A program made the position numbers and the translations under genes. From the NCBI RefSeq assembly GCF_005047655.1, contig NZ_SUKF01000009.1:124001-188000 (forward strand): DNA of 64,000 nucleotides. The letters are read 5' to 3'. Origin of the DNA: Sinimarinibacterium arenosum (GTDB taxonomy: Bacteria; Pseudomonadota; Gammaproteobacteria; Nevskiales; Nevskiaceae). This document shows positions 6,042 through 16,219 of this stretch, in pieces. The notes under the pieces are model-generated. The model saw only the letters and a program-made list of their open reading frames with translations. It was not told the DNA's origin and searched no databases. How positions within the stretch are numbered: the first letter of the stretch is position 1; every line of letters starts with the position of its first letter.

Positions 6042-6137
6042 TTCTCCTTGAAGGTAGATATTCGAGTCAGTCACACCATCGCAGCTCGCATAACCGTCCG
6101 GTTACTCGCGACTGCTAAAACCTTTTTCACCACGCCA

Positions 6138-6158
6138 TGCAGGAACTCTCTTCCTGCA
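6138..6158 (+). promoter_or_regulatory. Leader hairpin 1
   Basis: TGCAGGAA / TTCCTGCA is a perfect 8-bp stem with a 5-nt loop, 73 bp before the ATG at 6231. It is the first member of the leader family described in the findings. After it come GTCTC, a T-rich stretch and GAGAC. Confidence 0.5.
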
Positions 6159-6230
6159 CGGATGAGTGTTTGTCTCGCGCATGGTTTTTTCCTTCATGTC
6201 GCCGAGACCGACCCTTACCCGGAGCGTGCT

Positions 6231-6485
6231 ATGACTTCGGTGAGTCTTATCACCCGATTTGCCCAGCACCGCACATTGACCACAACCGGTCGATTGAGTG
6301 TTGGTCAAAGAAGTCTTTTCATGGACGCTACAAACAGTCTTGTTTGGGGTGTCGATGAGTACGGATGCGATCAGATTGTTTCGCATACCGATCTTGAGCT
6401 CGACTGGATGAATCGCGCCATCGACTGGATCAATGTTTCACACGGTCCAGCGTTGGTGCCTCCGGCTGAGTTTGTATACACCTAA
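6231..6485 (+). CDS. Small hypothetical protein
   Basis: 84 residues, starting at the ATG at 6231 with GGAG seven bases upstream. An in-frame extension to 6027 is possible but would run through the hairpin leader, so the shorter start is preferred. It has no signal peptide or metal motif; the C-terminal half is acidic (VDEYGCDQIV, DLELDWMNRAIDW). It is the first gene of the module that carries the AAA ATPase and VWA protein. Not recognised. Confidence 0.5.
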   Translation: MTSVSLITRFAQHRTLTTTGRLSVGQRSLFMDATNSLVWGVDEYGCDQIVSHTDLELDWMNRAIDWINVSHGPALVPPAEFVYT

Positions 6486-6501
6486 AGTTATTTCACCACC
6501 A

Positions 6502-6562
6502 TGCGGGGACATCCACTTCCCGCACGGGATAGGTCTGTCTCCGCTCCTTTTTTTGGAGACAG
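6502..6562 (+). promoter_or_regulatory. Leader 2 (hairpin plus SD-sequestering hairpin)
   Basis: TGCGGG (6502-6507) pairs with CCCGCA (6519-6524). Then CTGTCTCC (6535-6542) pairs perfectly with GGAGACAG (6555-6562) around a T-rich loop. The 3' arm contains the GGAG ribosome-binding sequence of the ATG at 6565, so the second hairpin would hide it. Confidence 0.6.
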
Positions 6563-6564
6563 GC

Positions 6565-6819
6565 ATGAAATCCAAAGTAGTTTCTGAACCGCATCTGGCC
6601 GAATGGCTCGGTGCGGCTTTCGGTGTAGGCGGAACTTTGCTGGCAGCAGTGTCAGCGCAGTTCCTTTTCTTCACATTTTCGGCGTATGCGGTGAGCAATG
6701 TCTCGCTGATCTACGCCGCCCGTGTTCGTCGCGCTCATGGCCTGCTCGCAATGAATGCGGCGTATTTCTCAATCACGTTGTTCGGGCTATACAACCACTT
6801 CCCCGGAGGTGGTTTGTGA
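6565..6819 (+). CDS. Small two-helix membrane protein
   Basis: 84 residues, starting at the ATG at 6565 three bases after the GGAGACAG arm of its leader. Two hydrophobic helices (about residues 14-36 and 55-75) flank a short basic loop (ARVRRAHG). The motif spacing (VSNVSLIYAARVRR, LFGLYN) vaguely recalls half of a PnuC-type transporter, but no family is claimed. Its TGA overlaps the GTG of the CobT-like gene (GTGA), and GGAGGTGG near its end serves the next gene, so the two are translationally coupled. Confidence 0.65.
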   Translation: MKSKVVSEPHLAEWLGAAFGVGGTLLAAVSAQFLFFTFSAYAVSNVSLIYAARVRRAHGLLAMNAAYFSITLFGLYNHFPGGGL

Positions 6820-14815: not shown

Positions 14816-14817
14816 CT

Positions 14818-14897
14818 CCCGGCACACGCCGGGTTCCCCTGTCGGGATTACTACTCCCGACAGGGGTGGTGATCCCTCTTTTTTTTCGGAGATCACC
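14818..14897 (+). promoter_or_regulatory. Leader 8 with mutually exclusive pairings
   Basis: CCCGGC/GCCGGG (14818-14833), then CCCCTGTCGGG (14836-14846) with CCCGACAGGGG (14856-14866), an 11-bp perfect stem. GGTGATC (14868-14874) pairs with GATCACC (14891-14897) across a T-rich loop, touching the CGGAG ribosome-binding sequence and ending at the ATG. Relative to leaders 2 and 7 the arms differ in sequence but pairing is kept. Confidence 0.65.
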
Positions 14898-15401
14898 ATG
14901 GAAACAAATGAAACGCTGGCGCCTGCGCCAGCACAGAAGGTCGGCATCACGCCGCGGCAGGTGGGCTTTACTGCCACCGCCGTTGTGCGGTCCGGCGAGC
15001 TGGACGCGGGCAAGGGCATCATCCGCGTCCACAACTCGCGGATCGATCGCAAGGGGGCCGGCAAGGACGGCTTCCGCCGCCGCGAACCCGTGATCCTCAT
15101 CAACTCCCACGACCCCAGCTGTTGGGTTGTGGGGGTGGTGATGGGTGCCGGGCGGAGCATCGAGGGCTTGTCCCGCGATAGCGTCGCCCTCGACTACGAC
15201 CAGCGTGACGCCCTCGGGCTGCACCGGTCGGAGTCTGAGGCGATCGAGGTCCGCCCGGCGACGCACACCGAGGTGTTCCGGTATTACTGGAACCACCCGG
15301 ATCCCGGCATGTCGCTGGCGACCCGACTGGGCGCCCTCGGCGTCGCGCTCGGCGTAGTCGGCGCGGTGCTGGGCCTGGTCGGTCTGGTCATCTCGCTGTG
15401 A
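14898..15401 (+). CDS. Hypothetical protein with a C-terminal membrane helix
   Basis: 167 residues from the ATG at 14898. Residues 20-130 look like a soluble beta-rich domain (TATAVVRSGELDAGKGIIRV, then VILINSHDPSCWVVGVVMGA). The C-terminus is a single hydrophobic helix (LGVALGVVGAVLGLVGLVIS), so the protein is probably tail-anchored with the soluble domain in the cytoplasm. The stop overlaps the GTG of the next gene (GTGA). Not recognised. Confidence 0.68.
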   Translation: METNETLAPAPAQKVGITPRQVGFTATAVVRSGELDAGKGIIRVHNSRIDRKGAGKDGFRRREPVILINSHDPSCWVVGVVMGAGRSIEGLSRDSVALDYDQRDALGLHRSESEAIEVRPATHTEVFRYYWNHPDPGMSLATRLGALGVALGVVGAVLGLVGLVISL

Positions 15402-15742
15402 GCGCCGGCGATCGCATCCTGGACAAGATTCGTCTTGCCCAGGCGCAGTCGCCTACGCCGCAGCGCGGGCCTGGCTACCGCTGGTTCTGGACGGACAGCT
15501 TCGAGCTGCCTCAGAACCTGCGGGACGCGTGGTGGCCAGCGGCAACGCCGGCCACCGTCGGAGTCACCCTCCTGGGCCTCGTGCCCGAGTCGGTGGTCTT
15601 CCGTGATGCACAGGGCCAACCCGCTCCCCCCGCTCAACCGCTTCGCTTCCGTGTGTTTCGACGGGACGACGCGCTGTGCGTGGTGGGGGCTCAAGTTGGT
15701 ACCCGCTGGGATCAGTGTGTCGTCATTCCCATCGTGGGATGA
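15398..15742 (+). CDS. Hypothetical protein
   Basis: 114 residues starting at a GTG at 15398 that overlaps the previous stop. It has an aromatic-rich N-terminal half (GYRWFWTDSFELP, then WWPAATPATV) and a beta-rich C-terminal half (FRVFRRDDALCVVGAQVGTR). No signal peptide. The overlap suggests it works with the tail-anchored protein encoded just before it. Confidence 0.55.
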   Translation: MSAGDRILDKIRLAQAQSPTPQRGPGYRWFWTDSFELPQNLRDAWWPAATPATVGVTLLGLVPESVVFRDAQGQPAPPAQPLRFRVFRRDDALCVVGAQVGTRWDQCVVIPIVG

Positions 15743-15790
15743 CCCTCTGACCCCGCAGTAAAGGAATTCTTCGCTCCGGTGCAAGCCGGG

Positions 15791-15843
15791 GCGGGGGGTT
15801 CCCCCAGGGGCACTGCGTTCAGTGCCTCCGGGGGAGCCTCCCG
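15791..15843 (+). promoter_or_regulatory. Leader 9 (long hairpin)
   Basis: An extended imperfect hairpin with inner stem GGGCACTG (15808-15815) and CAGTGCCT (15820-15827), and outer GTTCCCCC with GGGGGAGC. It is a larger version of the module's leaders, ahead of CGGAG and the ATG at 15875. It could also terminate transcription of the preceding pair. Confidence 0.45.
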
Positions 15844-15874
15844 CTCCACATCGTCTTGTTACCGGAGAATTGAT

Positions 15875-16219
15875 ATGACGAATTGCAGAACTAGCCCGAT
15901 CGTTGCGCGTCCTTACGCGTTGCGATTTGATCTGACCACGCCCGGTCACGTAATCGAGGCCGCTATCCGTGAGGCCAATGAGTTGCTCACGGCGCAGCTG
16001 CCAGGGTTGCTGTTCTTTCCCTTCGAGTGGAAAGAAGAGACCGCGGTGGGGCAGCGGTTTCAAGCTGTGCATTTGCACGCGGACGACGCCGGTTGGGAAC
16101 GGTTTCGGGCGCGTGGAATCAGCACGGTTCCGCTGCTGGCACGACGGATGGACATTTCGGTGTCGCGTCGTCGTCGCCCGGATAGCCTGGGGCGCGAGCC
16201 CCTCGCGATGGCGAGCTGA
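15875..16219 (+). CDS. Hypothetical protein
   Basis: 114 residues from the ATG at 15875 (CGGAG upstream). The first 75 residues form an alpha/beta domain (LRFDLTTPGHVIEAAIREAN, then LLFFPFEWKEE). A basic tail follows (SVSRRRRPDS). It is the last gene of the module and is followed by a strong terminator. Not recognised. Confidence 0.6.
   Translation: MTNCRTSPIVARPYALRFDLTTPGHVIEAAIREANELLTAQLPGLLFFPFEWKEETAVGQRFQAVHLHADDAGWERFRARGISTVPLLARRMDISVSRRRRPDSLGREPLAMAS

What the first reader, a model, noticed from the sequence alone, without database searches (positions are those of the whole stretch)
6130..15880. A family of structured leaders in front of most genes of one module
Up to nine leaders (before 6231, 6565, 8695, 9674, 10730, 12247, 13502, 14898 and 15875) share one layout: a GC hairpin, then a T-rich stretch and a GGAG or CGGAG just before the start codon. 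In four of them the ribosome-binding segment forms or abuts the 3' arm of a second hairpin. The arms are CTGTCTCC/GGAGACAG (6535/6555), AGTGATC/GATCACT (10695/10722), TGTCTCC/GGAGACA (13471/13491) and GGTGATC/GATCACC (14868/14891). Arm sequences differ between copies while pairing is kept, which is what covariation under selection looks like. At 10671-10728 the middle segment can pair either upstream, as a terminator with a T-run, or downstream, hiding the ribosome-binding site. This suggests a repeated RNA switch, attenuator or RNA-protein site that sets the expression of each subunit of one complex.
Basis: partly seen in the sequence, partly recalled or inferred. Interest (0 to 1): 0.88.

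Follow-up and report, generated by a model that had tools for sequence, protein, structure and literature searches.

The report
Two-way RNA switch repeated before genes
In front of one gene block after another of a plasmid operon lies a short RNA stretch that can fold in two competing ways, one resembling a transcription stop signal and the other hiding the ribosome-binding site; the same design recurs in plasmids and island-like elements of other proteobacteria and matched no catalogued RNA family searched here.

Summary
Seven of the nine leaders (6565, 8695, 9674, 10730, 12247, 13502, 14898) belong to one RNA family; 6231 is unproven and 15875 has a different, single long hairpin. The core is more specific than described: segments A-A'-D-B-U-tract-C. 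B pairs either upstream with A (long terminator-like hairpin T) or downstream with C, the Shine-Dalgarno segment (H2, with H1 = A:A').

A covariance model of nine leaders finds held-out leaders in related megaplasmids, pQBR103, pKLC102 and ICE-like elements, and hits 25 of 369 sampled Gammaproteobacteria genomes, often several per element. Alignment-free swap tests show that A:B and B:C each pair better with their own partner than with that of another leader of the same element (0 of 5000 permutations; repeated on 30 leaders outside both models), while A:C does not in that second set. No Rfam family matches.

Best reading: a co-transcriptional bistable attenuator, one per translationally coupled block, off at transcription and translation until something captures B. 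Termination, signal and factor are inferred. At 8695 and 9674 T and the SD hairpin can coexist.

The parts
6497..6567 (+). Leader of gene 6565. H1 6499-6527, T (alternative) 6503-6544, H2 with SD 6533-6564
   Evidence: R1 62.0 bits (in the seed); folds
8619..8697 (+). Leader of gene 8695. T 8622-8668; SD hairpin 8668-8690, which hardly overlaps T
   Evidence: R1 45.5 bits, not in the seed
9599..9676 (+). Leader of gene 9674 (AAA_5/MoxR-like ATPase). T 9603-9645 is part of the MFE; weak SD hairpin downstream
   Evidence: R1 29.1 bits, not in the seed
10663..10732 (+). Leader of gene 10730 (DUF3150). H1 10664-10693, T 10671-10703 followed by a T-run, H2 10695-10728
   Evidence: R1 50.5 bits (in the seed)
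12178..12249 (+). Leader of gene 12247. H1 with extension 12173-12212, T 12184-12227 followed by TTTTT, H2 12213-12247
   Evidence: R1 52.0 bits (in the seed)
13433..13504 (+). Leader of gene 13502. H1 13434-13463, T 13439-13479 followed by TTTTTCTTTTT, H2 13465-13504
   Evidence: R1 65.9 bits (in the seed)
14835..14900 (+). Leader of gene 14898. H1 14836-14866, T 14844-14876 followed by TCTTTTTTTT, H2 14867-14898
   Evidence: R1 45.1 bits, not in the seed; terminator-like site 14844-14876
6565..8576 (+). Coupled block: 84-aa ORF and VWA/CobT_C protein, whose start overlaps the preceding stop
   Evidence: PF11775 1.6e-12; overlap read
8695..9578 (+). Coupled block: 161-aa and 133-aa ORFs (ATGA overlap)
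9674..10633 (+). AAA_5 ATPase, MoxR/CobS-like
   Evidence: PF07728 5.1e-14
10730..11800 (+). DUF3150 protein
   Evidence: PF11348 1.6e-15
12247..13401 (+). Coupled block: 117-aa ORF, short ORF, 201-aa ORF
13502..14815 (+). 437-aa protein, no family above its cut-off
14898..15742 (+). Coupled block: 167-aa and 114-aa ORFs (GTGA overlap)
5908..5928 (+). 21-base element CAACNGTCCCTAGTGAYGTTG, candidate promoter or operator of a first transcription unit (inference)
   Evidence: two exact copies in the window, 0.01 expected with up to 3 mismatches; no other exact copy of its core in the 268-kb contig
11975..11995 (+). Second copy of the 21-base element, 272 bases before gene 12247

Best explanation
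Each leader is a co-transcriptional bistable RNA switch, one at the head of each translationally coupled block. Segments in order: P0 (CCC), A (GGGG plus loop), A' (CCCC), D (GGG), B (pyrimidine-rich), U-rich tract, C (Shine-Dalgarno), AUG. Conformer 1: P0:D and A:A' form hairpin H1, and B:C forms hairpin H2, which hides the SD. Conformer 2: A:B and A':D form one long hairpin T that ends at the U-rich tract. SHOWN by sequence statistics: both pairings covary and share the strand B, and the elements end at start codons. COMPUTED: when the RNA ends at the U-tract, T is the favoured fold in most leaders; once C has been made, H1+H2 is favoured in most. INFERRED: T acts as an intrinsic terminator or pause hairpin in the leaders with good U-tracts; transcripts that pass are then locked at translation. 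Expression is therefore off at two levels by default, and anything that captures B (an element-encoded RNA-binding protein, an antisense RNA, or a ribosome already engaged on nascent RNA) would turn on both at once. This would silence spurious transcription through long operons of mobile elements and let the genes be switched together.
For: Swap test on 77 non-redundant leaders (M = middle segment holding B): A:M own -17.33 vs -11.68 kcal/mol for foreign partners, 0/2000; M:C -15.09 vs -10.77, 0/2000; H1 loop:M 0/2000; control A:C 55/2000. Swapping only within one locus (70 leaders, 19 loci): 0/5000 for A:M, M:C and loop:M; A:C 119/5000. On 30 leaders of five loci used in neither model: A:M and M:C 0/5000, overall and within element; loop:M 0/5000 and 1/5000; A:C 2858/5000. 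T, not part of the model's structure, has covariation score 0.250 vs 0.178 shuffled (0/500) and at most 0.165 when slid; conformer 1, to which the alignment was fitted, 0.404 vs 0.177. Truncated near the U-tract, T is the MFE in 67 of 77 leaders vs a mean of 6.6 (max 10) with the middle shuffled (65 of 77 with another cut); T then gives way to H2 in the full leader in 58 of 77. U is 0.45-0.64 and A 0.08-0.18 at +3 to +7 after B, against 0.23 U over the leader. G.U vs A.C departures in T 142 vs 37, held-out 60 vs 10. Of 31 sense-strand hits in six named plasmids 29 end on annotated starts (15 of the 31 were in R2's training set).
Against: No expression, probing or termination data. 21 of 77 leaders have fewer than 4 U in the 8 bases after T, and pKLC102's first leader has no U-run there, so termination cannot be universal. 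The count of full-length H2 folds is not diagnostic: 72 of 77 observed, 69.4 with the middle shuffled; the swap test carries B:C. M:C is favoured because hits were selected with a model that contains H2. G.U hardly exceeds A.C in H2 (75 vs 60; held-out 19 vs 19) and not in the inner stem of H1 (23 vs 25; held-out 14 vs 2); for H2 it does (75 vs 17) if one column pair is left out, a choice made after seeing the data. A:C on the main set is slightly low (55/2000). In one search the number of pairs with double changes is 12 vs 10.0 (22/500). On the held-out alignment T is modest by column: covariation 4/500, cells paired 7/500, cells with double changes 27/500, but pairs with double changes 294/500 and pair types 317/500. 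At 8695 and 9674 T and the SD hairpin coexist. Two off conformers need an opener, and none is identified; no NusG-family gene was found in seven plasmid records.
Confidence: 0.6

Rival explanations
1. Purely translational switch: T is the ON conformer, because it takes B away from the Shine-Dalgarno segment, and H1+H2 is OFF. The U-rich stretch is a standby or S1/Hfq site, not a terminator tract. (The rivals are not all mutually exclusive, so the odds need not sum to one.)
For: Both pairings covary; 21 of 77 leaders have fewer than 4 U in the 8 bases after T, and pKLC102's first leader has no U-run there. T forms first and H2 later in 58 of 77, which would give a short window for translation of nascent RNA.
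Against: U enrichment starts at the foot of T while A stays low there, as for intrinsic terminators; in the window T at 10730, 12247, 13502 and 14898 is followed by a run of T.
Confidence: 0.3
2. Repeated binding site for one RNA-binding protein (autogenous control, as for ribosomal-protein leaders) that recognises H1; the alternative pairing is secondary.
For: The layout of C and G runs is kept while other sequence varies; many copies per element.
Against: Does not explain why arm and loop of H1 covary with the middle segment. No candidate protein found; only the NusG family was searched.
Confidence: 0.2
3. Ordinary terminator of the preceding gene plus an unrelated RBS hairpin; A:B complementarity follows trivially because A and the SD are both G-rich.
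For: A and C are both G-rich, so foreign partners also pair to some degree (-11.68 kcal/mol).
Against: Own partners pair better than foreign ones of the same locus for both A:M and M:C; the H1 loop alone also covaries with M.
Confidence: 0.05
4. Single-stranded DNA element folded during conjugative transfer, such as a single-strand promoter or protein site.
For: Found in plasmids and ICE-like elements beside DNA-processing genes. G.U does not clearly exceed A.C in H1 or, with all columns, in H2.
Against: G.U exceeds A.C in T (142 vs 37; 60 vs 10 held out), and the element contains the SD and ends at the start codon.
Confidence: 0.04

Closest known systems
Classical terminator/antiterminator attenuators and expression platforms of riboswitches (recalled; TRAP attenuation seen in a search listing)
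   Same: Mutually exclusive hairpins, one followed by a U-tract, one hiding the SD
   Different: Here both outputs compete for the same strand B in a leader of about 70 bases, and the device is repeated before block after block of one operon with the sequence changed each time
Internal terminators with processive antitermination in Gram-positive conjugation operons (abstract of PMC8955417 read)
   Same: Many terminators inside a long operon of a mobile element, thought to suppress spurious transcription
   Different: Here each hairpin overlaps the RBS region of the next gene and alternates with SD hiding; no antitermination system was identified or searched for beyond NusG paralogues
STAXI RNA motif RF01728 (passage of PMC2864571 read)
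   Same: Near genes for DNA-handling and antirestriction proteins
   Different: [quoted passage not shown] here one hairpin switch per start codon. No Rfam hit
radC RNA motif RF01754 (named in a table of PMC2864571; its gene associations are recalled)
   Same: Candidate cis-regulatory RNA of Proteobacteria; one leader here precedes a RadC-like gene
   Different: 149-position model; no match in the leader regions scanned nor in 229 genomes (where the 14 controls did not ring either)

Membership tests
Any Rfam 15 family (incl. radC RF01754, STAXI RF01728) | Match at or above the gathering score | tested here: not met
   0 hits in the window; only two group II intron hits in seven related loci; e-value scans gave no leader match above a gathering score (one true tRNA elsewhere in L217)
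Intrinsic-terminator attenuator | Stable hairpin followed at once by a U-tract | tested here: inconclusive
   T in 67 of 77 truncated leaders vs 6.6 shuffled; at least 4 U in 8 in 56 of 77; T-run of 4 or more in 34 of 77 loops vs 19.3 shuffled
Intrinsic-terminator attenuator | Competing, mutually exclusive alternative hairpin under selection | tested here: met
Intrinsic-terminator attenuator | Regulated termination in cells | not testable with these tools
   needs 3'-end mapping or in vitro transcription
SD-sequestering translational switch | SD paired in one conformer and free in the other, with covariation of the SD partner | tested here: met
   SD paired in 66 of 77 full-length MFEs (fold counts alone are not diagnostic); M:C covariation
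Riboswitch | Conserved ligand-binding aptamer | tested here: inconclusive
   Beyond the G and C runs few columns are conserved and the 69 model positions hold no separate domain; binding cannot be tested here
RfaH/ActX-type NusG paralogue control | NusG-family gene on the element | tested here: not met
   0 of 7 plasmid records; the window's genome has one, on another contig
Processive antitermination of conjugation operons | Antitermination system at the start of the operon | not tested
   -

The most novel reading that the evidence does not exclude
A widespread, uncatalogued class of cis-acting RNA switches forms an operon-wide post-initiation control layer in conjugative megaplasmids and ICEs: up to a dozen or more copies per element, each with its own sequence but one shared two-way logic, opened together by one element-encoded factor that captures strand B, so that replication, anti-restriction and recombination genes are released only at the right step of transfer.
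Probability: 0.3. Interest if true: 0.93.

Novelty: new variant of a known kind. Interest (0 to 1): 0.85.

Why it matters
If these leaders work as inferred, a large share of the core genes of pKLC102-like elements and of several megaplasmid families is controlled after transcription starts, block by block, by a compact switch. It would explain how long silent operons can be kept truly off, gives a handle (strand B) for a search for the missing regulator, and adds a sizeable family to the catalogue of bacterial RNAs. One base of B faces both a G of A and, in H2, the A of GGAG: it is C in 41 and U in 23 of 77 leaders with that G and A. C suits T, U serves both; it is a natural tuning point that can be tested directly.

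Tried and rejected
Rfam scans at gathering and permissive thresholds: no family for the leaders. radC RF01754 in 229 genomes: no match, but its controls did not ring, so that search shows little. A near-identity DNA search of the module in plasmids gave nothing. The genome-contig scan found one relative. Phage-like contigs: 65 loci with a related ATPase, none with a significant leader (R1 best E 0.11; R2 none at E<=0.5). CsrA as the factor: the Flagellatimonas plasmid carries csrA, but many SD segments lack the recalled ANGGA motif; not pursued and not counted. NusG paralogues: none on seven plasmid records. sRNA PesA of PAPI-1 (passages and one section of PMC5493400): encoded just downstream of pilM2; in pKLC102 the first leader lies some 850 bases after pilM with another hairpin between, so PesA seems to end elsewhere and is not used as evidence; I did not align the two. 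A simple descriptor scan underestimated the family. Counts of H2 in full-length folds are not diagnostic. Several H1 picks were wrong and are not used. Column-wise T covariation on the held-out set is weak for two of five measures. Literature: ten searches listed no paper that, by title or abstract start, describes these leaders; beyond listings I saw the abstract of PMC8955417, one section and passages of PMC5493400, and passages of PMC2864571 and PMC8565334; a term search in PMC8297930 found nothing. Subscription journals and supplements were not open to me.

Rows dropped before counts: one search left out one opposite-strand hit and 11 rows at least 80% identical to another (88 to 77); one search used 70 of these 77, those with a partner in the same locus; searches used all 88 distinct rows, the opposite-strand hit included; one search left out three opposite-strand hits and three near-identical rows (36 to 30); one search used 33 and all 36. 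One search took sense-strand hits only (two opposite-strand hits, in L003 and L223, left out).

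Full report
WHAT IS THERE. The window is part of a 267,883-base contig of a 4.54-Mb genome. A genome of the same family (G013) has a contig that equals in length and match position the Flagellatimonas centrodinii plasmid NZ_CP092105.1, so the host is a relative of that Nevskiaceae species. 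The module holds a VWA/CobT_C protein, an AAA_5 (MoxR/CobS-like) ATPase, a DUF3150 protein and small proteins of no family. Seven leaders of one kind precede 6565, 8695, 9674, 10730, 12247, 13502 and 14898. The genes without a leader inside the module (VWA, 9177, the two ORFs after 12247, 15398) start at, or just after, the stop of the gene before them, so there is one leader per translationally coupled block (coupling inferred from sequence). A 21-base element occurs twice, 323 bases before 6231 and 272 before 12247, and its core nowhere else exactly in the contig: two candidate transcription units.

STRUCTURE. H1 is P0:D plus A:A' (for 13502: CCC, GCGGGGA, TCCCCGC, GGG). H2 is B:C (TGTCTCC with GGAGACA) around a U-rich loop. 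The unexpected part is T: A, now including the loop of H1, pairs with B (GCGGGGACA with TGTCTCCGC) while A' pairs with D, giving one long hairpin before the U-tract.

RELATIVES. Homologous modules with such leaders lie on the Flagellatimonas plasmid, on a 100-kb contig of G038, a genome titled Endozoicomonas sp. G2_2, on pQBR103, pPma4326F, pPlaYM7902A and a P. rhodesiae plasmid, and in six further genomes, with R1 hits at E<0.005 (G039, G349, G345, G439, G172, G392). Against the first two relatives the three main proteins are 28-47% identical, so the leaders have diverged far.

MODEL AND SPREAD. R1 was built from nine leaders with conformer 1 only. It finds window leaders outside its seed, and in the own genome only the module at E<0.01. 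It hits 25 of 369 Gammaproteobacteria genomes at E<=0.001 (strict filters), although the DUF3150 profile hits only 6 of 369 at E<=1e-8: the leader is not confined to this module. R2 (81 leaders) hits 15 of 398 Pseudomonadota genomes, two of them outside the class. Many loci carry long series: at E<=0.05 one search lists 106 hits in 12 loci, for instance 15 in L206, 11 in L208, 11 in L210 and 15 in L249 plus L250 (recount; a few are on the opposite strand). In pKLC102 ten sense-strand hits at E<=1 fall between 12.8 and 20.7 kb of the locus, and nine end exactly on annotated starts. In six named plasmids 29 of 31 do; 15 of the 31 belonged to R2's training set. Genes under leaders include DUF3577/STY4534, ArdC, RecT, RadC-like, DUF932, SNF2-like helicase, DUF6573, DUF3275 and a cytosine methyltransferase.

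IS IT MORE THAN CHANCE. I asked whether A of a leader pairs better with the middle segment of its own leader than with that of others. Yes: -17.33 vs -11.68 kcal/mol, 0 of 2000 permutations; likewise middle with C (-15.09 vs -10.77) and the H1 loop alone with the middle (-3.99 vs -2.59); A with C, which should not pair, is weak (55 of 2000). Restricting swaps to leaders of the same locus guards against shared ancestry and composition and leaves 0 of 5000 for all three, 119 of 5000 for A:C. Thirty leaders from loci used in neither model repeat the result, and there A:C is null. Column counts agree on the main set and are modest on the held-out set. G.U exceeds A.C among the departures in T (142 vs 37; 60 vs 10 held out), which speaks for the sense-strand RNA; the inner stem of H1 and H2 as a whole do not clearly show it (23 vs 25 and 75 vs 60; held out 14 vs 2 and 19 vs 19). 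In H2 the A.C cells gather in one place: the column of B that meets the A of GGAG. There 41 of 77 leaders have G-C-A (A segment, B, SD), 23 have G-U-A and 8 G-C-G; without that pair H2 gives 75 G.U to 17 A.C, a cut made after seeing the data. U at that place serves both structures; C suits T and mismatches the SD.

ORDER OF EVENTS. For RNA ending near the U-tract T is the MFE in 67 of 77 leaders, against 6.6 of 77 when the middle is shuffled. For the whole leader T has been replaced by H2 in 58 of 77. The H2 count by itself is not diagnostic, since shuffled middles give H2-like folds about as often (72 vs 69.4). U is enriched and A depleted just after T, and 56 of 77 have at least four U in eight. 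Hence the reading of an attenuator with two locks. Which conformer is productive, and what opens it, are not known; the rival that T is the ON state is close behind.

AGAINST. Two claimed leaders are not supported. At 8695 and 9674 T and the SD hairpin can coexist. 21 of 77 leaders lack a good U-tract. There is no experiment. No regulator is found; NusG paralogues are absent from seven plasmid records.

NOVELTY. No Rfam family matches and ten literature searches listed no description, with the limits told under Tried and rejected. Bistable attenuators are a known kind; this family, and its use before block after block of mobile-element operons, appear new.

Noticed in passing
L134 (pQBR103) upstream of 8253, 10417, 10799, 13581, 14001: A second, different repeated leader family (CCGGGT...CTCGAG...ACCCGGC, then a second G/C-rich hairpin ending near GGCGGGT) before other genes of the same module; close copies of four of the five in pPma4326F and pPlaYM7902A.
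   Followed up: partly
window 15785-15850; L003 about 16560-16660; L041 (minus strand) before the ORF at 9895: Relatives of the 15875 gene share a leader with one very long hairpin and no clear SD hiding, unlike the switch leaders.
   Followed up: partly
window 5908-5928 and 11975-11995; similar at 34979 of NZ_CP092105.1: 21-base element CAACNGTCCCTAGTGAYGTTG with inverted ends, two exact copies, each about 300 bases before the first gene of a run; a diverged copy lies about 310 bases before the first module gene of the Flagellatimonas plasmid.
   Followed up: partly
window about 7508-7680: Six-base repeat (GACGCA/GATGCT) in the VWA gene coding a long Asp-Ala run; it causes spurious low-complexity protein hits.
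   Followed up: no
NZ_CP092105.1 (L040, L003, L039): The related plasmid carries its own csrA, recA, a sigma-70 factor, PRTRC genes, a ribonucleotide reductase subunit and thymidylate synthase.
   Followed up: no
window 11823-11858 and 16258-16289: Ordinary-looking terminator hairpins after the DUF3150 gene and at the end of the module.
   Followed up: no
L206 2773-2922 and 567-644, minus strand: Group II intron features follow the helicase gene of G105, whose frame ends after 395 residues where relatives have about 750.
   Followed up: no
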